Below are positions 41,894-55,765 of a stretch of DNA of 64,000 nt, piece after piece (the first letter of the stretch is position 1; each line of letters opens with the position of its first letter). Location of the stretch: contig NZ_FXBM01000001.1 of NCBI RefSeq assembly GCF_900177245.1, positions 310,001 through 374,000 of the forward strand, written 5' to 3'. Origin of the DNA: Rathayibacter oskolensis. GTDB lineage: Bacteria; Actinomycetota; Actinomycetes; Actinomycetales; Microbacteriaceae. The notes beneath the pieces are model-generated. The model did not search any database and was not told where the DNA came from. It saw only the letters and a program-made list of their open reading frames with translations. A program made the position numbers and the translations under genes.

Positions 41894-43990
41894 ATGCCCA
41901 AGAACAAGAAGCCCACCGGCGGTCGCCCCGCCAAGAACTTCGAACCGAACCGCTTCGGCCCCTCCAGCGGCAAGTCGCAGCTCGGAGGCCGTTCGCGCTT
42001 CCCCGCGGCGAAGCCCGGCGCGCGCAGCGAGGGCCACCGCGGCTACCGCCCCGTCGACGAGAACGCCCCGAAGAAGGCGCGCTGGAACGCCGACGAGCGC
42101 GCGACCCGCGCCGCCGAGCGCAGCGACCGCCCGGCCGAGCGCAGCGACCGCCCGGCCGAGCGCAGCGGCTACGACCGGAGCGAGCGCCCCGCCCGTTCGT
42201 ACGACCGCGACGAGCGCCCGGCTCGCGGCTACGACCGCAGCGAGCGCCCCGCGCGCCCGAACGACCGGGAGGAGCGTCCCGCCCGTTCGTACGACCGCGA
42301 CGCCCGCCCGGCGCGCAGCTACGACCGCGACGACCGTCCCGCGCGCTCGTACGACCGCGACGAGCGCCCGGCCCGCTCCTCCGACCGGAGCGACCGCCCG
42401 GCTCGCAGCTTCGACCGCGCCGACCGCCCCGCCCGCGGCTACGACCGCGATGCCCGCCCCGCGCGCTCGAACGATCGCGATGAGCGCCCCGCCCGCTCCT
42501 ACGGCCGCGACGACCGGCCCGCGCGCAGCACCGACCGCGACGAGCGTCCGGCCCGCAGCTACGGCCGCGACGACCGCCCGGCCCGCTCCTTCGACCGCGC
42601 CGACCGCCCGGCCCGCAGCTACGACCGCGACTCCCGTCCGGCGCGCTCGCACGACCGCGGAGACCGGCCGACCCGCAGCTTCGACCGCGCCGACCGGCCC
42701 TCGCGCCGCGACTCCGGATCGGACTTCTACCCGAGCCGCGCCTCGCGCCCCTCGCAGCAGGTCGACGACGTCGTGCTCGAGCGCCTCGAGGCGACCTCGA
42801 CGCTGGCGGTCGACGTCGAGGGCGTCACCTTCGGCGACCTCGGCCTCGGTGCCAACATCGTCCGCCAGCTGACCGAGCTCGGAGCGGCGGCACCGTTCCC
42901 GATCCAGGCCGCGACCATCCCCGAGGTGCTCGCAGGCAAGGACGTCCTCGGACGCGGCAAGACCGGCTCCGGCAAGACGATCGCGTTCGGCGCGCCCGTC
43001 GTCGAGCGACTGATGGAGAACAACGGCGCGAAGGGCCGCAAGCCCGGCCGTGCGCCTCGTGCGCTCATCCTGGCGCCGACCCGCGAGCTGGCGATGCAGA
43101 TCGACCGCACGATCCAGCCGATCGCGCGCTCCGTCGGCCTCTTCACGACCACCATCTACGGAGGCGTTCCCCAGTACAAGCAGGTCGGGGCGCTCCAGCG
43201 CGGGGTCGACATCATCATCGCGACCCCCGGCCGCCTCGAGGACCTGATCGAGCAGGGTCGCCTCGACCTCTCGAACATCACCATCACCGTCCTCGACGAG
43301 GCCGACCACATGTGCGACCTGGGCTTCCTCGAGCCGGTGCAGCGCATCCTCCGCCGCACCGCCGACGGCGGGCAGCGCCTGCTGTTCTCGGCCACCCTCG
43401 ACAAGGGCGTGGCGACTCTCGTCGACGAGTTCCTCGTCGAGCCGAGCGTGCACGAGGTCGCGGGCGAGGACCAGGCGTCCTCGACCATCGACCACCGCGT
43501 GCTGCTGATCGAGCACCGCGACAAGGGCGAGATCATCGAGCAGCTCGCCGCCCGTGCGGGCAAGACGCTGATCTTCGCCCGCACCCGCGCGTTCGCCGAG
43601 CAGCTCGCCGAGCAGCTCGAGCACGCCGACATCCCCGCGACGAGCCTGCACGGCGACCTCAACCAGTCGCGCCGCACGCGCAACCTCGCGCTGCTCACGA
43701 GCGGACGGGTCGACGTCCTCGTGGCGACCGACGTCGCTGCTCGCGGCATCCACGTCGACGACATCGACCTCGTGATCCAGGCCGACGCCCCCGACGAGTA
43801 CAAGACCTACCTGCACCGCTCCGGCCGCACCGGTCGCGCGGGCAAGAAGGGCACGGTCGTCACGCTGATCACGCGCAACCGCCGTCACCGGATGGAGGAG
43901 CTGCTCGAGCGTGCCGAGATCGAGGCCGACATGGTCGCCGCGTTCCCGGGCGACCGCGTGCTGACCGAGATCAGCGCACCCGCCGAGTAG
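41894..43990 (+). CDS. DEAD-box RNA helicase with a long Arg/Asp-rich N-terminal repeat
   Basis: This 698-residue protein has a basic, disordered N terminus (about residues 1-285) dominated by a decapeptide repeat of the type YDRDERPARS. The two RecA-like domains follow: Q motif with PFPIQAATIPEVLAGKDV, motif I GKTGSGKTIAF, Ia PTRELAMQ, Ib TPGR, II DEAD, III SAT, V ATDVAARGIH and VI HRSGRTGRAGKKG. It is an ATP-dependent RNA remodelling enzyme of the RhlE/DeaD class. The repeat resembles RGG/RS-like RNA-binding or phase-separating tails, but placed at the N terminus. A hairpin follows the stop. Confidence 0.93.
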   Translation: MPKNKKPTGGRPAKNFEPNRFGPSSGKSQLGGRSRFPAAKPGARSEGHRGYRPVDENAPKKARWNADERATRAAERSDRPAERSDRPAERSGYDRSERPARSYDRDERPARGYDRSERPARPNDREERPARSYDRDARPARSYDRDDRPARSYDRDERPARSSDRSDRPARSFDRADRPARGYDRDARPARSNDRDERPARSYGRDDRPARSTDRDERPARSYGRDDRPARSFDRADRPARSYDRDSRPARSHDRGDRPTRSFDRADRPSRRDSGSDFYPSRASRPSQQVDDVVLERLEATSTLAVDVEGVTFGDLGLGANIVRQLTELGAAAPFPIQAATIPEVLAGKDVLGRGKTGSGKTIAFGAPVVERLMENNGAKGRKPGRAPRALILAPTRELAMQIDRTIQPIARSVGLFTTTIYGGVPQYKQVGALQRGVDIIIATPGRLEDLIEQGRLDLSNITITVLDEADHMCDLGFLEPVQRILRRTADGGQRLLFSATLDKGVATLVDEFLVEPSVHEVAGEDQASSTIDHRVLLIEHRDKGEIIEQLAARAGKTLIFARTRAFAEQLAEQLEHADIPATSLHGDLNQSRRTRNLALLTSGRVDVLVATDVAARGIHVDDIDLVIQADAPDEYKTYLHRSGRTGRAGKKGTVVTLITRNRRHRMEELLERAEIEADMVAAFPGDRVLTEISAPAE
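42117..42720 (+). repeat. In-frame 30-bp tandem repeat in the DEAD-box gene
   Basis: About twenty degenerate 30-bp units encode variants of YDRDERPARS, differing mainly at the first and the DE/DA/DD positions. Codons alternate between synonymous forms, so the array is old enough to have diverged but could still vary in copy number. Confidence 0.85.
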
Positions 43991-45352: not shown

Positions 45353-45450
45353 CGTGCCAGTGAACCATCGCCTCCGGCACCCGAACCGGGGAGGAGCAGA
45401 GATCAGATCTTTCGTGCGTCCGGAGGAACCCGTCGGCTAGATTTCGCCCT

Positions 45451-46293
45451 GTGAGCGTTGAGCACCGCACTGCCGCCCTGCACGAGCAGCTCGACGCCTT
45501 CGGCTGGGAGGCGACCTCGAGTGTCGACTCGCTGCGCATCGACGGCGTCGGAGCCCCCGGCGCTCAGATCGGGCGCGCCTGGTCACCCGGAGGGTCGTAC
45601 CGGTCGAGGTCGGTGCCCGGCAGCATGTACGTGCTCTTCACGATCGAAGGCACCGGCAGAGTCGTCCACGACGGCACCGAGATCGCGTCGGAGCCGAACC
45701 AGCTGATCTTCCTCGACGGCGAGGCCGTCTCGACGATCGAGCTGCACGGGCCCACTGCGCGCTACCTGTGGCGCTTCGATTCGGGCGCTCTGCGCGACTC
45801 CCGCGTGCGCGAACGCCTCGGTGAGGCGATCCCGGTGCGCGACTCTCTCTGGACTCCCGTGCGCGCCCTCACCAACGGCCTCATCGACGGCGATCCGGAG
45901 CTCGCCCGATCGATCCACGCGGCCCGCGCCAGCGAGCACCTGCTCACCGCGATCTTCGAGAACACCGCGCTCTCGGCCCGTCCCTCCCGGAGCCCGGACG
46001 AGCTCTGCGGAGACGCCCTCCAGCTCATCGCGGCGCACAAGTGCGATCCGGCCTTCACCCCCGCTCGCCTCGCCCGCGAGCTGCAGGTGACGGAGCGGGC
46101 GCTGCGCGAGGCGTTCTCGTACATGGGAAGCACCGCGGCGCAGGAGCTCGACCGGCAGCGCGCCCAGGAGCTGCGAGGGCGGCTGGGCGCGGGGGAGTGG
46201 ACGGAGCGCGATCTGGAGCTGCACGCAGAGGAGTGCGGGTTCGTGTCGCCGGCCAGTGCCCGACGCGCGCTGGCACGGTGGGCGCTCGAGTAG
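45451..46293 (+). CDS. AraC-type regulator, edge member of the regulator set
   Basis: This 280-residue protein has an N-terminal cupin-like sensing domain (about residues 30-130; GSMYVLFTIEGTGRVVHDGT) and a C-terminal AraC-type HTH region (about 190-275; FTPARLARELQVTERALREA). The layout matches the three regulators further on, but similarity is weaker, and it has no divergent exported-protein partner; its divergent neighbour is the M18 aminopeptidase. TAGATT (45438-45443) ends seven bases before the GTG, so the transcript may be leaderless. It converges on the frameshifted regulator at 46312. Confidence 0.82.
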   Translation: MSVEHRTAALHEQLDAFGWEATSSVDSLRIDGVGAPGAQIGRAWSPGGSYRSRSVPGSMYVLFTIEGTGRVVHDGTEIASEPNQLIFLDGEAVSTIELHGPTARYLWRFDSGALRDSRVRERLGEAIPVRDSLWTPVRALTNGLIDGDPELARSIHAARASEHLLTAIFENTALSARPSRSPDELCGDALQLIAAHKCDPAFTPARLARELQVTERALREAFSYMGSTAAQELDRQRAQELRGRLGAGEWTERDLELHAEECGFVSPASARRALARWALE

Positions 46294-46311
46294 GTAGGGG
46301 CGGCGAGCCGC

Positions 46312-47215
46312 TCACGAGCGCCGCTCGAGGAGGCGCTCCGCCGCGCGCAGGGCCCGCAGGGACCGGAAACCGGAGAGGCGCGCGGATAATCTCCCGGTCG
46401 GCTTTCGACGGTGAGGCACGGCGCTCCAGGATCTGCTGCGCGGTGCGCACCCGGGTGCGGTGGATCTCGGTCAGCGGGGTGGTTCCCGCCCGCGCGTAGG
46501 CCTTGTGCAGGTGCGCGGGCGAGATCGAGAGGCGGGAGGCGAGGTCGGTCACTCCGAACTCCGCGTCGCGGTGGCGGGCGTCGATCACCTCCTTCGCGCG
46601 CTGCAACAGGCGGTCGACGGCGACGGAGGGGTGGACCGGGCTGGTCGGGCCCGCCTCGCTCAGCACCGCCGCGGCCGCGTTCTCGATGACGTCGTGCACG
46701 CGGTGCCAGCTCGTCTCGCTCGCCGTCGGTCCCGAGTTGAGGGTGGCAACGACGGCGGCCAGCAGGATGTGGGTCGCGCCCAGCTCGGGAGGCACGACGT
46801 GCAGCGTGCGCGGCGCGGCGACTCCGAGGCGTGACGCGAAGTCGGCCGCCAGCTCGATCTCGACCGTGCCGCAGGGGGCCGCGGCCTCGACGGTGACCGC
46901 GTCGGTGCTGACGTGCGCGTAGGCGGCGCCCTTGCTCAGGTCGTAGCGCCCCGAGGTGTCGGACACGGTGACGTCGCCGTCGGCAACGAGGGAGACCCGC
47001 AGTCCCTCGGTCGAGCGCGACCGCAGCACGCGGCGTGCGTTGTGATAAATCCGGCTGATCGCCAGGTCGCCGACCTGCAGGCGGTCGGCGTAGAGGCGCA
47101 GGTCGTCCTGCGACTCCACCAGGCTCATCCCCTCCTCCGCCAGCCAGTCGGAGGCTGCCGTCCCGGTCAGGACGATGCGGGCGACGTTCCGGGTCGTCGT
47201 CGTGGCTGCCGGCAT
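46312..47215 (-). pseudogene. AraC-type regulator of exported protein A, frameshifted near its end
   Basis: This gene encodes a regulator of about 300 residues when one extra base near 46384 is ignored. The first frame gives a sensing domain (WLAEEGMSLVESQDDLRLYA, through about residue 120) and a first HTH (DLASRLSISPAHLHKAYARA). It then reads ADREIIRAPLRF. Removing one base gives EIIARLSGFRSLRALRAAER and a stop at 46312, which aligns with ERIAHAAGFRTARTMAA in the paralogue at 52061. The uncorrected frame runs on over the next gene with Pro/Arg-rich nonsense. The ATG at 47215 follows GAGGGGG. It is divergent from the exported protein gene at 47441, which also has a frameshift. Confidence 0.8.
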
Positions 47216-47440
47216 CGCCACCCCCTCGCACTTCTCGTCGTCCGACCGTCGCGGCGGGGAGCCGCGCACCTGTTCATTGAGACAGCCGAGGCGGTCGTGG
47301 CGCTGCTGCTCGGCAGGACTGGCGGGAATCTCTTCCGTCTGGCGCAGAAAAGTCGCCTATCCCGGCCCTCGGCTTCCCGCCTCCGGAGCCCCTCCTGAGT
47401 ATGTGAGGAGTCCACAACTTCCTACCTCTGGAGAACTCCT

Positions 47441-49031
47441 TTGACGAACAAGCCCGAGAAGACCGAGCGCACGATCCTGGCCGGCGACGACTGGTCCGTG
47501 CCCGCTGAGAACGGCGTCGGCCGCCGCACCCTGGTGCAGGCGACTGCCTGGACGATCCCCGTCGTGGCCTCCGCGGTCGCGACTCCGGCGTTCGCCGCGT
47601 CGCTGTCGCCGACCCTCGAGATCGTCAACGGTCCGTTCGCCGTCACGGCCTGCTCTGCAGTGCCCACGGTCGTGGTACACGCGACCACCGACGGCTCCAC
47701 TCCCGTTGCGTCCGGCACTCCGATCACGATCACGCTGCCGGCCGGGTACTCCTGGTCGGACGGTACGACCGCCCCCAAGGTGTTCCCGACCGGTGCGAAC
47801 GGTGACGCGTCGGTGACGGGCGTCGTCGCGGGACCCGCGAACGGCACGGCCGTGATCACCGCAACCGGCAACGGCACGTCCGACACCACGACGGTGACCA
47901 CCACAGGCGAGAAGCTCTTCCTCAAGGCCGCGACTCCGACTTCGACCGGAGTGATCAGGTCCACGCAGTTCCCCGCAGGGCTGACCATCACCGACCTGCA
48001 GACGACGACGGGACCCGGCGGTATCACCTACCTTTACGCGCTGGCGAGCGATGGAAGCGTCTACATCTCGTCGTACAGCGGCAACGCTCAGCCCAGCGCG
48101 TGGTCCCAGGCCCCGACCCTGGCGGGCTCCGTCACTGAGATGGCAGCGGGCACGAACAACAGCGCCTTCACCTGGCTCACCGACGGCACCTCGGTGCAGT
48201 CGGCGACCAAGAACTCGGCGGGCTCCTACGTGACGGCGCCGGCGCTGCCGGCAGGCGTGACGATCACCGACCTCGAAGCGACGAAGGGTTCCGGCGGCAC
48301 GACCCACATCTTCGCCACGGGCAGCGACGGAACCGTGTACCACGCAACGTGGAACGGGACGGCGGCGTCGACCTCCAGCTGGACGGCGAGCCCCTCGCTG
48401 AGCGGCACGGTGACCGACGTGTCGGTCGGGACGGACGGAAGCGCCTTCGCGTGGGCGACAGACGGGACTTCCGTGACGTCGGTGACGGTGAACTCGTCGG
48501 GTTCCTACGTCTCGACGCCGACGTTCCCCGCGGGAGTCACCATCACGGACCTCACGTCGACGACCGGACCCGGTGGGATCACCTGGATCTACGGGAAGGG
48601 AAGCGATGGAAGCGTGTACTACTCGACATGGAACGGATCGGCGTCGTCGACGTCGGCCTGGACGAAGAGCCCGTCTTTCGAGGGCGACGTCGCGACGCTC
48701 ACCGTCACCAACAACAACTCCGCCGCCGGCTGGGTGACCGACGGCACGTCGGTGAAGTCCGTCACGCCGAACGGAGGAGGCGCGTACTACTCGACGCAGG
48801 TGCTCCCCAACGGCGCGTCCGTCAAGGACGTGCAGGTGACGAAGGGATCGGGGGGGTCTGACGTGGATCTATGCGCGGGGCAGCGATGGCAATGTCTACT
48901 ATTCGACCATCAACGGCAACGCCCAGCCCACCGCGTGGAGCACCAGCACCGCGTTCGACGGCACCGCCACCGATATGGCGCTGAACGACGACAACTCCGC
49001 GGTCGACTGGATCGTCGGAACGGCGTGCTGA
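47441..49031 (+). pseudogene. Exported two-cysteine repeat protein A (frameshifted in a G7 tract)
   Basis: With one G removed from the G7 run at 48850-48856 the gene encodes 529 residues. The pre-sequence GDDWSVPAENGVG leads into a twin-arginine signal (GRRTLVQ, about residues 27-33, then a hydrophobic stretch and AFAAS). An Ig-like domain with FAVTACSAVPTV (Cys 71) follows, then four repeats of about 92 residues, each opening with [FL]PAGVTITDL and containing SDGSVY and TDGTSV phrases. These resemble PLL/tectonin-like beta-propeller repeats. The corrected frame ends VGTAC, the only other cysteine of the mature protein. As sequenced, the last repeat is replaced by out-of-frame sequence. TTG start with GGAG upstream. 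The function is unknown; carbohydrate binding is possible. Confidence 0.78.
48850..48856 (+). repeat. Run of seven G causing the frameshift in exported protein A
   Basis: Seven G in the fourth repeat of protein A. With six G the frame reads KGSGGLTWIYARGSDGNVYY and continues to the C-terminal Cys. With seven it switches to an unrelated frame. It is either a slippage-prone switch or a base-calling error. Confidence 0.75.
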
Positions 49032-49067
49032 CCCTGATAGGCGTAGTCGTGCGGTGATCCGTCGATA

Positions 49068-49111
49068 CACGGAAGGACCCCGCTGTTGTGCAACGGCGGG
49101 GTCCTTCCGTG
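49068..49111 (+). terminator. Terminator after exported protein A
   Basis: A perfect 16-bp stem (CACGGAAGGACCCCGC / GCGGGGTCCTTCCGTG) with a 12-nt loop lies 37 bp after the corrected stop of protein A. This is the strongest hairpin in the window, and its distance supports the corrected stop as the true end. Confidence 0.88.
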
Positions 49112-49227
49112 CACTGATGCGAGGAGACGCGACGGGTCGCCTCCGTCGGGCGCCAACTCCGAGGCCGCCGCTCGATACCGGGTCAGGATGAGCGGCGGTC
49201 GCCGCGAGGCGGGTCTGGAGGATGTCG

Positions 49228-50220
49228 ATGGGCGCCATGGTGCTGTTCCCGCTGCTCGTCGGTGGCGTGCTGCTCGCCTCCGGGCTGGGCAAGATCGGGT
49301 CGTCGGGGCGGCTCGTCGAGGCGGGGATGCGGTTCGGCGTCCCACCGCGATGGGCCACCCTCGGCACGGCTCGCCTGCTGATCGCGGGCGAGATCGTGCT
49401 GGCGGTGGCCGTCCTGGTCGCGCCGTGGCCGCTCAGTGTCGGGGCGTGCGCGGCGGCCGTGGCGGTGCTCGCAGGATTCACGGTGCTGACCGCGCGGGCG
49501 CATCGGCGCGGCGACGACTTCGACTGCGGGTGCTTCGGGGTGCTCGCCGAGACTCGGGTGGGGCGGGGGCTCGTGGTCCGCAACTCGGCTCTGCTCGCGG
49601 CCGCCGTGGTCGCGCTCGTCGCGGCGGTCGGGTCGCGGCGCTCCGTGCCGCAGACTCTCGCGGCGTTCGGCGCGGAGGAGTGGGCCTGGCTCGCGGCGGT
49701 CACGGTGGTCTCGGCCGTGGTCGCCGTTATCAGCCGGCTTCTCGAACGGGACCGCGCTCGCCTGCCCGAGCCCGCCGAGGTCGCGTCGACAGAGGTCGAG
49801 CGCCTTCTGGGGTACAGGGTGGCGCCCACGTTCGAGGTGGTGCGCCGCGACGGCACCGTGGTCGACATGCACGCCCTCGTGGCGACGACTCCGCACCTGC
49901 TGGTGTTCGTCCGGCCGGGATGCGGCTCGTGCGATCAGCTGATGGAGGCGTCCGACGAGCTGCAGGCCTCTCTCGGTCACGCGGCTCACCTGGTCTTCGC
50001 GACGGGCGCCGCCCGGGAGGTGCTCGACGTCGCGCACCCGAGGCTCGGCGATCGCGTCGTCTTCGGGGTCGCCTCCGCCCGCGAGAAGCTCGGCGTCGAG
50101 AAGACGCCCGCGGCGGTGCTGATCGGCCTCAACGGCCGGCTCGTCGCCGGCCCGGTGCACGGTGCGCGTGCGGTGGTGGAGCTGGTCGAGAGCTCAGCAG
50201 GACTGCGGTCCTCCTGGTAA
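49228..50220 (+). CDS. MauE/DoxX-like membrane protein fused to a thioredoxin-like domain
   Basis: This protein of about 330 residues starts with four hydrophobic helices of the MauE/DoxX type (about residues 1-140; LLASGLGKIGSSGRLVEAGM and the cytoplasmic or loop DDFDCGCFGVL Cys pair). A further helix and a thioredoxin-like domain (about 185-320) with the redox motif VRPGCGSCDQLMEAS and a cis-Pro region EKTPAAVLIGLNGR follow. MauE-type proteins support disulfide formation in exported proteins such as methylamine dehydrogenase. The ATG at 49228 has GGAGG six bases upstream. Lying between two genes for exported two-cysteine proteins, it is a good candidate for oxidising them. Confidence 0.85.
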   Translation: MGAMVLFPLLVGGVLLASGLGKIGSSGRLVEAGMRFGVPPRWATLGTARLLIAGEIVLAVAVLVAPWPLSVGACAAAVAVLAGFTVLTARAHRRGDDFDCGCFGVLAETRVGRGLVVRNSALLAAAVVALVAAVGSRRSVPQTLAAFGAEEWAWLAAVTVVSAVVAVISRLLERDRARLPEPAEVASTEVERLLGYRVAPTFEVVRRDGTVVDMHALVATTPHLLVFVRPGCGSCDQLMEASDELQASLGHAAHLVFATGAAREVLDVAHPRLGDRVVFGVASAREKLGVEKTPAAVLIGLNGRLVAGPVHGARAVVELVESSAGLRSSW

Positions 50221-50257
50221 TGGCCCGGCCGCAGTCGCGTCGCTGCGCTCGAGGCGG

Positions 50258-50305
50258 GGCGTGGCTCTCTGCAGGACGCCGAAGCAGCGAGCAGAGGGCC
50301 ACGCC
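50258..50305. terminator. Bidirectional terminator between the MauE-like gene and exported protein B
   Basis: A 15-bp stem (GGCGTGGCTCTCTGC / GCAGAGGGCCACGCC, one T-G wobble) with an 18-nt loop lies between the convergent genes. Confidence 0.75.
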
Positions 50306-50347
50306 TGCTCCTTCACCGAAGGAGTCGGCCGTCGACGAGCAGTGTCG

Positions 50348-51847
50348 TCAGCATTCGGTCCCGGCGACAACGGCGTAAGCGTTGGTGTTCTCGTTCAGCG
50401 CCACGTCGGTCGCAGCGTTCGGGAACGCTGTGCTCACCTGCCAGCTTCCGAAGTTCCCGTTCGTCACCACGCTGCGATAAGCGTTGCCAGTGCTGCTCAG
50501 TGCGACGATGACGTTGTCGCCCGACGATGTCCGGACGCTCTCGAGCGAGAGCACCTGTCCTCCGTCCGGGAGGGTCGTGGTGTCCGTCCCGGCGAAGTTG
50601 CTGATCGTGGTGCCGTCCGTCAGGAAGGCATAGGCGTTCCCGCTGTTGTTCAACGCGACCAGAGTCGCCGAGCCGGGGAAGGCCGGGCTCGTCTGCCAAG
50701 GACCGAAGGCTCCGCTGGCCACTGTCGAGCGATAGACGTTCCCGTTGCTGCTGCGCGCGACCACCACAGGGTTTCCGTTGGGGTCCGTGATGGTGTCGAC
50801 CTCGACCACCTGACCACCGTCGGGAAGAGTCGCCGCGGCGGTGCCTGCGAAGTTGCTGATCGTGGTGCCATCGGTCACGAACACATACGCAGGTGTCGAG
50901 TTGTTTACTGCGACGAGAGTCGTGCTGTTGGGGAAGGCCGGGCTGGCTTGCCAGCTGCCGAAGTTCCCACCGGTGACAGTCGCCCGGTAGGCGTTGCCGT
51001 TGGCGCTGAGTGCGATCACGACAGGGTTTCCAGAACCGTCCGTGACGCTCTGTAGACCGACGATCTGTCCTCCGTCGGGGAGGGCGACGGAGTCCGTGTT
51101 GGCGAAGTTGCTGACAGTCGACCCGTCGGAGAGGAAGCCGTAGCCGTTTCCGTTGTTGCTCAGGGCGATGAGGGACGTCGCCTGCGGATACGCCGTACTC
51201 GTGCTCCAGGCTCCGAAGGAGTTTCCACCACTGTTGAGTGTCGTGCGGTAGGCGTTGCCGTCCGTCCCGAGGACCAAGACCTGCGTGTCTCCAGTGGACG
51301 TCCTGATGGTCTTGAGGTCGGCTACGGCGACACCGGTGGGCAGCCTGATGGCCGCGCTGCTGGAGAAGGTCTTCACCACGCCGGTCTCGCCCGTCACCTC
51401 CACCGACTCCGTCGCGGTGAGCGACCCACTCGCAGCGCTGATCGCAAAAGTGCCGTCCTTCGCGGGAGCCTCGATGCCGGTGAGCGAGACCTGACCGGCG
51501 GCATCGGTGACGAAGCTGCGCGGGGCGGTCGTGCCGTCGGACCAGGTGAGGCCGGACGGCAGGGTCACGGTCACCGACTGCCCGACGGCCGGTACGGACC
51601 CGTCGGTCGTGGCCTGGAGGATGATGGTCGGCAGTGCCGAGCACGCTGTCGCGCTGTAGGGCCCGTTGACGAACTCGAGGGTCGGTGCCAGTGACGCCGC
51701 GAAAGCAGGCGTCGCCACTGTGGCGGCGATGACGGGGACGGTCCACACGGCGCCCTGCACCAGCGTGCGCCGGCCGACTCCATCCAGGTTCGGGACGGTC
51801 CAGTCGTCCCCGATCTTGATCTCGCGGACTGGCTTTTCTCTGGTCAT
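50348..51847 (-). CDS. Exported two-cysteine repeat protein B
   Basis: This intact 499-residue protein shows the full design of the family. The pre-sequence IKIGDDWTVPNLDGVG (about residues 10-25) precedes a twin-arginine signal (GRRTLVQGAVWTVPVIAATV) and a cleavage region AFAAS. The Ig-like domain starts with YSATACSALPTI (first Cys) and contains LPSGLTWSDGTTAPRSF. Four repeats of about 86 residues follow, each with LPDGGQ, an ANGNAYRATV-type phrase, WQ.SPAFP and TDGTTISNFAG. The protein ends VAGTEC: the second cysteine is the last residue. The repeats resemble PLL-like propeller blades, two per unit. It is exported and, with no anchor, probably released or wall-associated. The divergent AraC-type gene at 52061 is the likely regulator. 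Confidence 0.85.
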   Translation of the reverse strand: MTREKPVREIKIGDDWTVPNLDGVGRRTLVQGAVWTVPVIAATVATPAFAASLAPTLEFVNGPYSATACSALPTIILQATTDGSVPAVGQSVTVTLPSGLTWSDGTTAPRSFVTDAAGQVSLTGIEAPAKDGTFAISAASGSLTATESVEVTGETGVVKTFSSSAAIRLPTGVAVADLKTIRTSTGDTQVLVLGTDGNAYRTTLNSGGNSFGAWSTSTAYPQATSLIALSNNGNGYGFLSDGSTVSNFANTDSVALPDGGQIVGLQSVTDGSGNPVVIALSANGNAYRATVTGGNFGSWQASPAFPNSTTLVAVNNSTPAYVFVTDGTTISNFAGTAAATLPDGGQVVEVDTITDPNGNPVVVARSSNGNVYRSTVASGAFGPWQTSPAFPGSATLVALNNSGNAYAFLTDGTTISNFAGTDTTTLPDGGQVLSLESVRTSSGDNVIVALSSTGNAYRSVVTNGNFGSWQVSTAFPNAATDVALNENTNAYAVVAGTEC

Positions 51848-51914
51848 GTCTTCCTCTGCATCGCTTGTCGGGAGGGAGGCGCTGGCGCCCCGGTACGCGA
51901 GCAATCGTCGTGAT
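51844..51914 (-). promoter_or_regulatory. Conserved leader with five-codon ORF before exported protein B
   Basis: About 70 bp directly upstream of the start are nearly identical to those before exported protein C (about five changes and one indel). The leader contains ATGCAGAGGAAGACATGA (MQRKT), whose stop overlaps the main ATG (ATGA) and whose sequence includes the AGAGGAAG binding site. Translational coupling is likely. Upstream of it, TACGCGAGCAATCGTCGTGA (plus-strand reading) is also conserved and may be a regulator site. Confidence 0.6.
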
Positions 51915-52060
51915 AAAGCGGCGAGCAGCGAAGCAGGAGTCGGGATAATTACCCTTTCTGGTCCGCTTCGCTTCCGATCTGCGTCGGAAGCGGGATTTCC
52001 TGCCCTCCTGGCCGTCTTGTGAGGGGAGCCGGGAAGTCCCCGGTGTCGAAGGGCTCGCGG

Positions 52061-53023
52061 ATGCAGGGCAGATCTCGTCTCGGCGCACCCGACGCGGATG
52101 CCAGCCGCGGGGTTGCGCTCTCCGACCGCGACGCGGTCGCCTGGCTCGCAGATCGAGGCTGGAGCGTCGCCTCCGACGAGCGGCCGTTGCGCCTGTACGC
52201 CGACGAGGTGCGCGTCCGCGGCTTCCGGATGGCGAGGGTGTGGCACACGCCCGCGCGTCTCTCGAGTCATCCGACGCGAGCACCCGACGGACAGCGCGGG
52301 CGGATCGAACTCGTGACCGTCGTCGACGGCGCCCTCTCGATGCGGTGGGGGGAAGGCCGATCGACGGTGTCGAAGGGCGATTCGATCCTCCTGCCGCTCG
52401 ACGACGCCTTCGAGATCGAGACGAGCGTGCCGACGGGTCGTGTCGAGTTCTCGCTGCCCCTGCGCGACCCGCTGGCGCGGCTGTCGGCGGCGACCGTCCT
52501 CGACTCCTCGGAGTTCTCCCGGATCCTCGTCGCTCTCGCGAGCTCGATCCTCGCCTCCCCGCTGACCCCGGCCGAGAGCGGCTACCCGCAGCTGACGACC
52601 GCCGTCGAGCACGCGGCCCTGGCTTTCCTCCGCAGCAGCGCGGCCGGCGATCGACCGGGAGGGGTCTCCTCGGCCGAGGCGGCTCTCTTCGCGCTCGCGA
52701 TCGATGTCATCGACGAGGAGGCGAGCGATCCCTCGTTCTCGGTAGCCGTACTCGCCCGACGCCTGCGCGTCTCGGCCCGCCGCGTCGGCCAGGTCTTCGC
52801 TGCGTACGACTCCACCGCGCAAGCGCACATCCGCTCGGCTCGCATCGGCGTCGCCACCCGCCTCCTCGAGCAGCACCGAGCCACTAGCGCCGAGGAGCGC
52901 GAGCGCATCGCGCACGCGGCGGGCTTCCGCACGGCGCGCACGATGGCAGCACGCCTGCGCGAGTGGGACGGCCGCCCGGCGGCGAGCCCGGGACAGCGGT
53001 CGGAGGATCGAGGCCGGCCGTGA
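52061..53023 (+). CDS. AraC-type regulator of exported protein B
   Basis: This protein of about 320 residues has an N-terminal sensing domain (about residues 15-145; AWLADRGWSVASDERPLRLY, IELVTVVDGALSM, SILLPLDDAFEI) and a C-terminal AraC-like HTH pair (about 215-310; VAVLARRLRVSARRVGQVFA and ERERIAHAAGFRTARTMAAR). It is close to the regulator at 54786 over its whole length. ATG at 52061 has AAGGG six bases upstream; an alternative GTG at 52043 is also conserved in the paralogue. Divergent from the exported protein B gene with a 213-bp gap. It contains no cysteine-based or metal motif; the signal is unknown. Confidence 0.85.
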   Translation: MQGRSRLGAPDADASRGVALSDRDAVAWLADRGWSVASDERPLRLYADEVRVRGFRMARVWHTPARLSSHPTRAPDGQRGRIELVTVVDGALSMRWGEGRSTVSKGDSILLPLDDAFEIETSVPTGRVEFSLPLRDPLARLSAATVLDSSEFSRILVALASSILASPLTPAESGYPQLTTAVEHAALAFLRSSAAGDRPGGVSSAEAALFALAIDVIDEEASDPSFSVAVLARRLRVSARRVGQVFAAYDSTAQAHIRSARIGVATRLLEQHRATSAEERERIAHAAGFRTARTMAARLREWDGRPAASPGQRSEDRGRP

Positions 53024-53182
53024 CCGGGCGGGGAGTTCATCCGCGCCGATCCGATCGACCGGAGCCGAGGGCAGGCGACCGGTGCCGGATCGTCGTGCGG
53101 CGCGGAGTCCTGGACCCCGTAGCACCCGCGAGGCGCGGAGGTCGAGGTGGCGGGAGACGGGATCGTCATCGTCCGCGCGCAT

Positions 53183-53217
53183 CAGGAGCCCCGCCGAGTG
53201 TCACGGCGGGGCTCCTG
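53183..53217. terminator. Bidirectional terminator between regulator B and exported protein C
   Basis: A perfect 13-bp stem (CAGGAGCCCCGCC / GGCGGGGCTCCTG) with a 9-nt loop lies 25 bp from the stop of exported protein C. The 160 bp between it and the regulator stop hold nothing recognisable. Confidence 0.82.
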
Positions 53218-53241
53218 CTGTTCAGGCCGGGCTCGGAGCGG

Positions 53242-54570
53242 TCAGCAGTTGCCGCCGGAGACGTAGCTGATGACGCTGGTGCCGCTGGACGGCACGTACT
53301 GTTCGACCGCCGAGGAGACGTTCTTCGCGATGAGCTTGTCGCCCTTGTAGAGGTCGCCGTTCGGGGCGAGGAACGTGGCGGTGCCGACGGCGGTCGAGCC
53401 GGCAGGGACGTTCACGTACGGGAACGTGTTGCCGTTCGTCGGGTTGTATCCGTAGGCGCCAGTCCCGTCGACGTACGAGATCCGGGTGTCGGTGCTGTTG
53501 GCGCCGACTCTCTGGATCGACGCGGAGGTGACTCCGGAGGACTTCACGACGGTGTCGCCGAAGTAGAGGGCTCCGGAGGGTGTCAGGAAGAGCCCCATGC
53601 CCACAGCCTCGGCGTCCGCCGGAACCTGCGTGAAATTGGTCACGTTCCCGTTGGTCGTGTTGTAGGTGTGCGCTCCGCTCGCGTCCATGTAGCTGACTCG
53701 AGTGCTGGCCGGGTTGTTACCGACGGTCTCGGTGTGGGCCGAGGTCACGTTGGAGGCGATCTTCCCGTTGCCGTAGTAGAGGTCGCCGTTGGGCGCGAGG
53801 AACGTGTTGAGCCCGACGGTCGTCGAGCCCGCCGGCACGCTCGGCGCCTGGCTGGCGTTCGGGTTCTGCGACACGTTGAAGTTGTAGCTGCCGGTCGCCG
53901 TGCTGTAGCTGACGATGTTGTCACCGTTGGCGCGGTTCTCCTCGGCCGCTGAGGTCACGCCGGTGGCGAGGAGCCTGTTGCGCAGCCAGAGCTCGCCGTT
54001 GGGAGCGAGGTAGATGCCGGTCCCGAGCGCGGTCGACCCCAGCGGCACGCTCGTGTACGCGGCCGTCCTCTTCGTGGCGGTGTTGTACTGGATCGCGGTG
54101 CCCGCCGGGTGGACGGTCACGGTGCTCGTCGCCGACGCCCCGGTGCTGCTCGTCGCGATGAGGGTGTAGGAGCCAGTGGTCGACGTCGCGCGGACGCCCG
54201 TCACCTCGAACTCGCCGTTCTGATCGGTCGTGAACGGGCGGGGCCCGGTGCTCCCGTCAGACCAGGTCAGTCCGGAGGGCAGCGAGACGGTCACGGTCTT
54301 GTTGGCATCGGCCGAGCCTCCGGCTGTGAGTTTCAGGTCGATCTCGTCGAGCTCGCCGCACGCCGTCACGTCGTAGGGGCCGTTGGTGAACACGAGCTCG
54401 GGGTCGGTCGTCGTCGATGCGGCGGCGAGCGGCGCGGCGGACGCCGCGGCGATCACGGGCACGGTCCAGACGGCGCCCTGGACGAGGGTGCGGCGGCCCA
54501 CTCCGTTCAGGTTGGGGACGCTCCAGTCGTCGCCGATCTTGATCTCGTGGACTGCTTCTTCTCTGGTCAT
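53242..54570 (-). CDS. Exported two-cysteine repeat protein C
   Basis: This intact 442-residue paralogue has the N-terminal half of proteins A and B: pre-sequence IKIGDDWSVPNLNGVG, twin-arginine signal GRRTLVQGAVWTVPVIAA, and Ig-like domain with YDVTACGELDEI (first Cys) and LPSGLTWSDGSTGPRPF. The repeat half differs: four units of about 71 residues beginning VPAGSTAVG, followed by FLAPNGDLYYGNGKIASNVT, STRVSYMDASGAH and YNTTNGN. The protein ends VSGGNC, so the last residue is again the only second cysteine. The change of repeat type behind one conserved leader domain points to module exchange. The divergent AraC-type gene at 54786 is its partner. Function unknown; a surface-binding role is inferred. 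Confidence 0.85.
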   Translation of the reverse strand: MTREEAVHEIKIGDDWSVPNLNGVGRRTLVQGAVWTVPVIAAASAAPLAAASTTTDPELVFTNGPYDVTACGELDEIDLKLTAGGSADANKTVTVSLPSGLTWSDGSTGPRPFTTDQNGEFEVTGVRATSTTGSYTLIATSSTGASATSTVTVHPAGTAIQYNTATKRTAAYTSVPLGSTALGTGIYLAPNGELWLRNRLLATGVTSAAEENRANGDNIVSYSTATGSYNFNVSQNPNASQAPSVPAGSTTVGLNTFLAPNGDLYYGNGKIASNVTSAHTETVGNNPASTRVSYMDASGAHTYNTTNGNVTNFTQVPADAEAVGMGLFLTPSGALYFGDTVVKSSGVTSASIQRVGANSTDTRISYVDGTGAYGYNPTNGNTFPYVNVPAGSTAVGTATFLAPNGDLYKGDKLIAKNVSSAVEQYVPSSGTSVISYVSGGNC

Positions 54571-54637
54571 GTCTTCCTCTGCATCGCATTGTCGGGAGGG
54601 AGGCATTAGCGCCCCTGATACGCGAGCAATCGTCGTG
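54567..54637 (-). promoter_or_regulatory. Conserved leader with five-codon ORF before exported protein C
   Basis: This copy of the leader also carries MQRKT with its stop overlapping the main ATG. Differences from copy B cluster in a short central segment (ATTAGCGCCCCTGAT against CTGGCGCCCCGGT), while the ends are unchanged, suggesting that both ends are under selection. Confidence 0.6.
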
Positions 54638-54785
54638 AAGGAGAGGCGGATCACGAAGAACGGAGGAGAAGAATTAGGGATTCACGTCCGCGATACTTTC
54701 AACATCCGTCCCGGGCGGTATTCTCCGACGCTCCGGACGTCTTGTGGGGGAAGCCGGGAAATGCTCGGTGTCGAAGGGCACGCGA

Positions 54786-55712
54786 ATGCAGAGCAGATCT
54801 CGACTCGGCGCAGCGGAAGCGGGCTCGACGCGCGGAGTCGCCCTCTCTGGCCGCGACGCGCGAGCATGGCTGGCCGATCGGGGCTGGGACCCGGTGCCCG
54901 GCGACGCACGGCCGCTCCGGCTCTTCGCCGACGAGGTGCGCCTCGGGAGCTACAGGGTGGCGAGGGTCTGGCACACGCCGTTCCGGATCAGGAACGTGCG
55001 CGGCCGTCCTGATCCCGAGCGTCCGGGGATCGAGCTCGTCACCGTCGTCGACGGCTCGCTCGCGGTAGGTGGGGCCGACGGCGAGTCGTCCGTCGCCAAG
55101 GGGAGTTCGATCCTCCTGCCGCTCGACAGCGCCGTCGAGATCTCGAGCACGGAGCCCACCGGCCGGGTCGAGTTCTCCCTGCCTCTGCGCGATCCGCTCG
55201 GTTCGTCGGCCCTGCCCTCGGCGGCGACGGTCCTCGACCCGTCCGACTTCTCGAGGATCCTCGTCGTGCTGGCGAGCTCCATCCTCGCGTCGCCCCTGAC
55301 GCCGGCGGCCAACGGCTACCCGCAGCTGATGAACGCGGTCGAGGACGCGGCGCTCGCGTTCCTCCGGAGCACCGCTGCCGCTGAGCGAACCGGGTACGTC
55401 TCGTCGGCCGAGGCGGCCCTCTTCTCGCGCGCGGTCGACATCATCGACGAGGAGGCGGGCGACCCGTCGTTCACCGTGGCCGTCCTCGCCCGTCGACTGC
55501 GGGTGTCGGCGCAGCGGGTCGGGCAGGTCTTCGCCGCGCAGGGCTCCACGGCGCAGGCGCACGTCCGGGCCGTTCGGGTCGCCCGCGCCACCCGGCTGCT
55601 GGAGGAGCGGCGGGTCACCAGTGCCGACGAGCGCGAGTCGATCGCGCGAGCGGCTGGGTTCCGCACCGCGCGCACGATGGCGGCGAGCATGCGCAGCGCT
55701 GGCCAATCGTGA
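54786..55712 (+). CDS. AraC-type regulator of exported protein C
   Basis: This protein of about 308 residues aligns with the regulator at 52061 along its length: AWLADRGWDPVPGDARPLRL, SILLPLDSAVEISS, LSILASPLTP-like ASSILASPLTPAANGYPQLM, VAVLARRLRVSAQRVGQVFA and ERESIARAAGFRTARTMAA. The sensing domain is cupin-like and the HTH pair AraC-like. ATG at 54786 follows AAGGG, and a conserved GTG lies 18 bp earlier. It is divergent from the exported protein C gene and should control it. Confidence 0.85.
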   Translation: MQSRSRLGAAEAGSTRGVALSGRDARAWLADRGWDPVPGDARPLRLFADEVRLGSYRVARVWHTPFRIRNVRGRPDPERPGIELVTVVDGSLAVGGADGESSVAKGSSILLPLDSAVEISSTEPTGRVEFSLPLRDPLGSSALPSAATVLDPSDFSRILVVLASSILASPLTPAANGYPQLMNAVEDAALAFLRSTAAAERTGYVSSAEAALFSRAVDIIDEEAGDPSFTVAVLARRLRVSAQRVGQVFAAQGSTAQAHVRAVRVARATRLLEERRVTSADERESIARAAGFRTARTMAASMRSAGQS

Positions 55713-55765
55713 GCAGGCGTGACCTCGGAGGAGGGCAGCCGGGCTCAGAACCGTACGGCCGGGAA

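What the first reader, a model, noticed from the sequence alone, without database searches (positions are those of the whole stretch)
45451..55712. Candidate undescribed system: three exported two-cysteine repeat proteins, each with its own divergent AraC-type regulator
Three gene pairs (46312/47441, 52061/50348, 54786/53242) repeat one plan. Each has a regulator with a cupin-like sensor and AraC HTH, divergent from an exported protein with the pre-signal GDDW[ST]VP, a twin-arginine signal, an Ig-like domain and four long repeats. All three regulators are paralogues and all three exported proteins share the N-terminal half. A fourth AraC-type regulator and a membrane disulfide-type protein lie within the cluster. 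This suggests a set of separately switched surface or secreted binding proteins. That the system is undescribed is my inference from not recognising it.
Basis: partly seen in the sequence, partly recalled or inferred. Interest (0 to 1): 0.87.

Follow-up and report, generated by a model that had tools for sequence, protein, structure and literature searches.

The report
Separately regulated exported lectin-like propeller proteins
In Rathayibacter, a genus of plant-associated bacteria, a multi-copy family of exported proteins with a constant front part and a fast-changing repeated part that looks like a binding disc often sits back to back with its own regulator gene, which suggests a repertoire of separately switched binding proteins.

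Summary
The window is Rathayibacter. Three AraC-type regulator/exported-protein pairs and a fourth regulator form a 10.4-kb island (45368-55759) absent from the collinear Leaf185 locus. E1 and R1 are frame-interrupted. The exported family matches 15 of 15 genus genomes but 8 of 299 sampled family genomes. A divergent regulator lies at 31 of 47 places tested, 29 of the 38 strongest. Of 39 proteins with long tails, 37 are repetitive and 33 have an Ig cysteine plus one at the C-terminus. E2 models as Ig plus beta-propeller (pLDDT 86); Foldseek's best hits are Photorhabdus lectins. E3 did not fold. Between the nine closest pairs the N-terminal halves stay 58-84% identical; five tails, E2/E3 among them, are within 2 sd of shuffles, three clearly related. 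Best reading: a modular repertoire of exported, probably glycan-binding proteins, each locally regulated. Ligand, switching and export route are untested; no description was found in the library searched.

The parts
45368..55759 (.). island holding the whole cluster, absent between the M18 aminopeptidase and fasciclin genes in Rathayibacter sp. Leaf185
   Evidence: blastn window vs L001: 44058-45367 matches 11301-9986 (88%) and 55760-59851 matches 9967-6024 (82%), no hit between
45451..46293 (+). R4, fourth AraC-type regulator, divergent from the M18 aminopeptidase gene
   Evidence: regulator profile 3e-67; AraC_binding_2 and HTH_18, both below the gathering score
46312..47215 (-). R1, AraC-type regulator, frame interrupted between about 46408 and 46377
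47441..49031 (+). E1, exported Ig-like plus 93-aa-repeat protein; frame changes at or next to a G7 run at 48850-48856
   Evidence: DUF346 20.1 bits, below the cut-off of 22
49222..50220 (+). MauE-type membrane protein with a CxxC-bearing thioredoxin-like C-terminal part; not a conserved partner
   Evidence: PF07291 2e-21; best match per genome 32-40% identical in 15 of 15 genomes
50348..51847 (-). E2, signal, Ig-like domain and four 85-aa repeats predicted as a beta-propeller; C-terminal Cys
51848..52042 (.). divergent intergenic region E2/R2; aligns along nearly its whole length with the E3/R3 one
   Evidence: local DNA alignment
52043..53023 (+). R2, AraC-type regulator divergent from E2
   Evidence: HTH_18; regulator profile 2e-91
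53242..54570 (-). E3, signal, Ig-like domain and four repeats of about 72 aa of another type; C-terminal Cys
   Evidence: fold not predicted (pLDDT 38)
54571..54785 (.). divergent intergenic region E3/R3
54786..55712 (+). R3, AraC-type regulator divergent from E3, 71% identical to R2

Best explanation
A modular, multi-copy family of exported binding proteins, most with their own divergent AraC-type regulator. The constant N-terminal half (pre-signal, RR-type signal, Ig-like domain with one Cys) exports and holds the protein. The variable C-terminal half (usually four long repeats, ending in the second Cys) forms a radially symmetric beta disc; in E2 this is a beta-propeller, most likely eight-bladed with two blades per repeat, that resembles bacterial fucose-binding propeller lectins. 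The two cysteines probably form a bond that ties the C-terminus to the Ig domain. The regulator probably senses a small molecule through its cupin-like half and switches only its neighbour, so the cell chooses which binder to make. Diversification works by duplicating the cassette and then rapidly changing the repeat half. Shown by computation: pairing, two-Cys and repeat pattern, E2 fold prediction, faster divergence of tails than of N-halves. Inferred: glycan binding, disulfide, switching, release or wall attachment, biological target.
Against: Sequence support for a lectin is weak: only E1 touches DUF346, below the cut-off; E2 and E3 do not. The Foldseek matches to the lectins have query TM only 0.43-0.50, and non-lectin WD40 propellers score higher in VIA. 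E3 did not fold, and one relative of the E3 type passes a '4-fold beta flower' family cut-off by summed weak matches, so not all tails need be propellers. Three of the nine closest pairs have clearly related tails (z 4-7), and E2/E3 tails share a weak local match (24% over 181 aa, E 5e-6 with permissive settings), so divergence rather than replacement is possible. 9 of the 38 strongest places lack a divergent regulator. Regulators also serve other exported proteins. The 20-pair correlation includes orthologous pairs, which inflates it.
Confidence: 0.5

Rival explanations
1. Extracellular nutrient capture: each protein binds a plant or microbial polysaccharide for scavenging, and its AraC-type regulator senses the released sugar, as in sugar-utilisation operons; no host adhesion is involved.
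For: AraC/cupin regulators next to their targets are typical of sugar use (recalled); the regulator profile's N-terminal half finds cupin chains in the PDB.
Against: In the gene maps I saw no transporter or glycosidase that recurs beside the pairs, but neighbours were judged by eye from their first 45-80 residues, not by family search. Many paralogues with fast-changing tails would be unusual for a nutrient pathway.
Confidence: 0.2
2. Antagonism: polymorphic secreted toxins or bacteriocin-like proteins with a constant export half and a variable active half.
For: A constant N-half with a faster-changing C-half is the layout of polymorphic toxins (recalled).
Against: Most tails are regular repeats with two Cys, and Pfam scans of 11 and 10 members gave no believable catalytic domain. 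I saw no recurrent small partner gene that could be an immunity gene, by eye only; this was not searched systematically.
Confidence: 0.1
3. Ordinary lineage-specific gene family: exported proteins of no single function, with regulators carried along; interruptions show decay.
For: E1 and R1 are interrupted; several regulators elsewhere are in two pieces; strong matches were found only inside the genus at this depth.
Against: Pairing, two-Cys pattern and C-terminal Cys are kept despite strong divergence.
Confidence: 0.15

Closest known systems
PLL/PHL lectins of Photorhabdus (seven-bladed beta-propellers; I recall that they carry DUF346 repeats)
   Same: Foldseek's best matches to the E2 model; an E1 repeat touches DUF346; several homologues per genome (five in P. 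laumondii; abstract and passages of PMC12203525 seen).
   Different: E proteins carry an export signal, an N-terminal Ig-like domain and two conserved Cys; four equal repeats make eight blades likelier than seven; DUF346 is below its cut-off.
AraC/XylS-type regulators with divergent target genes
   Same: AraC HTH C-half, cupin-like N-half, divergent from the presumed target.
   Different: A paralogous series in one genome, typically one per exported protein; window copies are below the Pfam gathering score and below every NCBIfam cut-off.
Exported Ig-like protein with RCC1 repeats in another Microbacteriaceae genome (L239)
   Same: Same kind of signal, Ig-like domain, RCC1 propeller repeats above the cut-off, C-terminal Cys.
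   Different: No regulator of this family in L239; the Ig match is weaker (1e-12).
Polymorphic toxins
   Same: Constant N-half and variable C-half layout (recalled comparison).
   Different: No toxin domain or immunity gene recognised; immunity genes not searched systematically.

Membership tests
AraC/XylS regulators | C-terminal double helix-turn-helix (HTH_18) | tested here: met
   18 of 18 aligned members hit PF12833 at E<=0.01, best 2.4e-12; R1-R4 of the window are below the gathering score; the profile finds AdpA and other AraC chains, best 4e-8
AraC/XylS regulators | N-terminal cupin-like effector domain | tested here: inconclusive
   weak hits: AraC_binding_2 in 4 of 18, Cupin_6 in 2 of 18; profile positions about 63-113 align to cupin chains, E 2e-5 to 0.009
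AraC/XylS regulators | controls the adjacent gene | not testable with these tools
   needs expression or footprint data
PLL/DUF346 lectins | beta-propeller fold | tested here: met
PLL/DUF346 lectins | DUF346 repeat above the curated score | tested here: not met
   E1 20.1 bits against 22; none for E2 or E3
PLL/DUF346 lectins | seven blades | tested here: inconclusive
   the model has 28 strands of three or more residues after residue 104, which fits seven blades of four or eight of three to four; four equal 85-aa repeats favour eight; the higher VIA Z are to WD40 and cd1 propellers that I recall as eight-bladed
PLL/DUF346 lectins | binds fucose or another sugar | not testable with these tools
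   -
Tat substrates | RR motif before the hydrophobic stretch, A-x-A-like end | tested here: met
   RRTLVQ in E1-E3 and AFAAS or LAAAS at the end of the stretch; similar in the relatives printed; by eye, no signal predictor was run
Tat substrates | export depends on Tat | not testable with these tools
   -
MauE/MauD (methylamine utilisation) | MauE membrane domain | tested here: met
   PF07291 77 bits, cut-off 27
MauE/MauD (methylamine utilisation) | MauD equivalog score | tested here: not met
   TIGR02661 22.5 bits, cut-off 188.6
Phase-variable contingency genes | homopolymer tract at the frame break | tested here: met
   two regulators of one genome (G228): G14 and G10 at the break; R1 of the window has no such run and E1 has G7
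Phase-variable contingency genes | tract length varies within a population | not testable with these tools
   needs reads

The most novel reading that the evidence does not exclude
Rathayibacter carries a polymorphic binder repertoire: a constant export/Ig module fused to fast-changing symmetric beta-disc lectins, one sensor-regulator per binder, with some regulators switched on and off by poly-G slippage. The cell would display different glycan-binding discs in its different niches (grass tissue, plant-parasitic nematode cuticle, competitors), a bacterial analogue of a variable-receptor repertoire.
Probability: 0.15. Interest if true: 0.88.

Novelty: new variant of a known kind. Interest (0 to 1): 0.62.

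Why it matters
How Rathayibacter tells plant, nematode and competitor surfaces apart is open; [quoted passage not shown] This family gives concrete candidates: exported presumed binders with their own regulators, up to 12 places per genome, one with a confident propeller model, and proteins of a size that can be made recombinantly and put on glycan arrays. It is also a clear example of a constant export half joined to a faster-evolving repeat half that keeps its own regulator.

Tried and rejected
Pattern scan of genome contigs with the N-half found no relative, probably because the patterns were too strict; the profile search in whole genomes then found them. Plasmid collection: no match to E2. 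PDB by sequence: nothing below E 0.01 for E1, the E1-E3 profile, the Ig profile, one E3-type relative or the E3-type tails. Many single Pfam hits of repeat tails, some even above cut-offs (Rubredoxin, DUF3850, WYL_2), were rejected as sums of weak repeated matches in which no single stretch passes; the '4-fold beta flower' hit of one relative (38.5 bits, cut-off 25) is of the same kind and is left open. RCC1 in L239 has a stretch that passes alone. MauE as a fixed partner was rejected. I first thought that the poly-G tracts of L153 and L172 were the same site; reading the frames showed different positions (note 3 was written before that), so that argument was dropped. The first split of signal+Ig from tail was wrong for L167 and L159; one search repeats it with corrected splits, and its numbers are used. 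With them E2/E3 tails are 31% identical (shuffles 27%, z 1.7) instead of 23% (shuffles 28%). No sigma-70-like promoter was found, which says little for a high-GC actinobacterium. A shared operator was not established: the E2/R2 and E3/R3 intergenic regions align throughout because the cassettes are recent duplicates. The correlation is inflated by orthologous pairs. Literature: searches listed no paper on this family; the library lacks most subscription journals. I remember old work on bacterial adhesion to Anguina nematodes, but one search did not list it and nothing rests on it. The padloc library and signal predictors were not run.

Full report
Where it is. The window has about 72% G+C. The M18 aminopeptidase beside the cluster is 91% identical to that of Rathayibacter sp. 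Leaf185 and 80-87% to eight further Rathayibacter or close Microbacteriaceae genomes, so the window is Rathayibacter. No own genome is held. Against Leaf185 (L001) the window is collinear on both sides, but 45368-55759 has no counterpart: the two matching flanks lie about 20 bases apart there.

What is in it. Three regulator/exported-protein pairs, a fourth regulator and a MauE-type membrane redox protein. E1, E2 and E3 share pre-signal, signal and Ig-like half; their tails consist of four repeats with periods 93, 85 and about 72 residues. E1 changes frame at or next to a run of seven G, and its last stretch, which also ends in Cys, follows in another frame; R1 is interrupted near its C-terminus. 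Whether these are real or assembly errors cannot be told here.

How widespread. A profile of the Ig-like domain (15 rows) matched 15 of 15 genomes of the genus with 1-12 places each, 55 in all at E<=1e-5, but only 8 of 299 genomes sampled across the family at E<=1e-7. Six of those eight are in the genus set; the other two (G168, G280) match weakly (4e-9, 3e-11). The regulator profile (18 rows) matched 15 of 15 genus genomes at E<=1e-15 and 21 of 299 family genomes at E<=1e-25. In the two family-wide searches only up to 16 and 7 candidates per genome were scored, so those counts are lower bounds.

The pairing. I cross-tabulated 47 of the 55 exported-family places (E<=1.6e-9) with 85 of 128 regulator places (some are pieces of one gene): 31 of 47 have a regulator on the opposite strand upstream within 1.3 kb; among the 38 strongest (E<=1e-17) it is 29. 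The window's own three pairs are not counted. Of the nine strong exceptions, two have the regulator adjacent upstream in the same direction (G307, G309:C44), four have one within 1.3 kb in another orientation or position, and three have none within 2.8 kb. The places without any regulator nearby in G002, G003 and G308 are one conserved gene of another kind (see below). By gene maps of loci that were chosen for an Ig or regulator match, 23 of 42 Ig genes had a called divergent regulator as immediate upstream neighbour, two one in the same direction, 17 another gene; this lower figure counts split or uncalled regulators (such as R1) and array members as 'other'. 54 of the 85 regulator places are not beside an Ig gene. 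Of 24 other genes in these maps that carry the RRT[IV]V..AAWT[IV]P-type signal, 13 have a divergent regulator (examples, mostly about 200-290 residues); one group of regulators is kept in another context. Similar pairs occur outside the genus: L232 divergent, L226 divergent with a called 64-aa frame between, L234 in the same direction. So the regulator family goes with a class of exported proteins, of which the two-Cys repeat proteins are a large subclass here.

Anatomy of the exported family. Of 42 members at E<=1e-15 (three from the window), 39 have a tail of over 200 residues; 37 of these beat 20 shuffles in periodicity, typically four units of 68-93 residues or two double units (L170 and L166 about three); 32 of 39 have exactly two Cys; 33 of 39 have a Cys in the Ig domain and one within the last three residues. 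Repeats within one protein can be 90% identical (L165, L157), whereas neighbouring repeats of E2 are 46%, which points to recent repeat homogenisation in some members.

Modular evolution. In the nine pairs with the closest regulators (49-77%), N-halves are 58-84% identical and tails 25-46% (medians over 190 pairs: regulator 31%, N-half 45%, tail 29%). Five of the nine tails, E2/E3 among them, lie within 2 sd of shuffles, one is marginal (z 2.2) and three are clearly related (z 4.1, 5.9, 7.1). Local alignment with permissive statistics agrees: N-halves E 1e-50 to 2e-93 in all nine, tails E<=2e-23 in three, 5e-6 to 4e-7 or 2e-5 in three, 0.02 or worse in three. For E2/E3 the regulators (71-72%) and the intergenic regions align along their length. 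So the cassette was duplicated and the repeat half then replaced or changed almost beyond recognition.

Regulators. All 18 aligned members hit HTH_18; the profile finds AdpA and other AraC chains and, for the N-half, cupins. Several regulators appear in two pieces. In one genome two of the splits lie at G14 and G10 runs. In the eight genomes whose tract listing is complete, 3 of 54 G>=9 tracts fall in regulator genes against 0.13 expected (Poisson P 3e-4, from the listings; a post hoc test; the other seven genomes were not counted). This is a hint of phase variation, not proof; R1 of the window has no such run.

Literature. PMC5552033 (passages) describes secreted serine proteases of R. toxicus and has no occurrence of AraC or Ig-like. 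PMC6113626 (one passage) has no occurrence of AraC or secreted. PMC12203525 (abstract and passages) reports that Photorhabdus PLLs prefer fucosylated glycans and did not bind the cuticle of their nematode partner, a caution against a simple nematode-adhesion story.

Verdict. Function, ligand and switching remain to be tested.

Noticed in passing
L153:7178, L156:4314, L172:3824, L164:2384: G runs of 9-14 in, or in L164 at or just before the start of, regulator genes; two coincide with frame breaks. They are the only runs of 9 or more in the 485 kb scanned. Candidate phase-variable regulators.
   Followed up: partly
L181:2570-4261, L182:3058-4737, L183:2802-4403: An Ig-like exported protein of 533-563 aa in three genomes, always followed by a 485-aa gene that reads like amidophosphoribosyltransferase, without an adjacent regulator of the family; a protein in another genome (L239:1811-3409) has RCC1 repeats above the cut-off.
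   Followed up: partly
L184-L196, L226, L232, L234: Small exported proteins (mostly about 190-290 aa, several types) with the same W-x-P signal beside the same regulator family.
   Followed up: partly
window 47480-47600, 51700-51812, 54420-54530: The pre-signal GDDW[ST]VP and the hydrophobic stretch W[ST][VI]PV repeat a W-x-V-P motif on both sides of the arginine pair; similar pre-signals also occur before unrelated mature domains.
   Followed up: no
window 41894-43990: DEAD-box helicase-like protein with a long N-terminal array of DRPARSYDR-like repeats.
   Followed up: no
G006:C18:62642-63586, G007:C20:482218-483147: MauE/thioredoxin-type genes lying next to short matches to the same export signal, possibly an oxidase for cysteine-bearing exported proteins.
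   Followed up: no
L192, L193, L197, L198, L199, L200, L201: One regulator of the family recurs in a similar neighbourhood in several genomes, in most next to a small membrane-type protein instead of an exported one.
   Followed up: no
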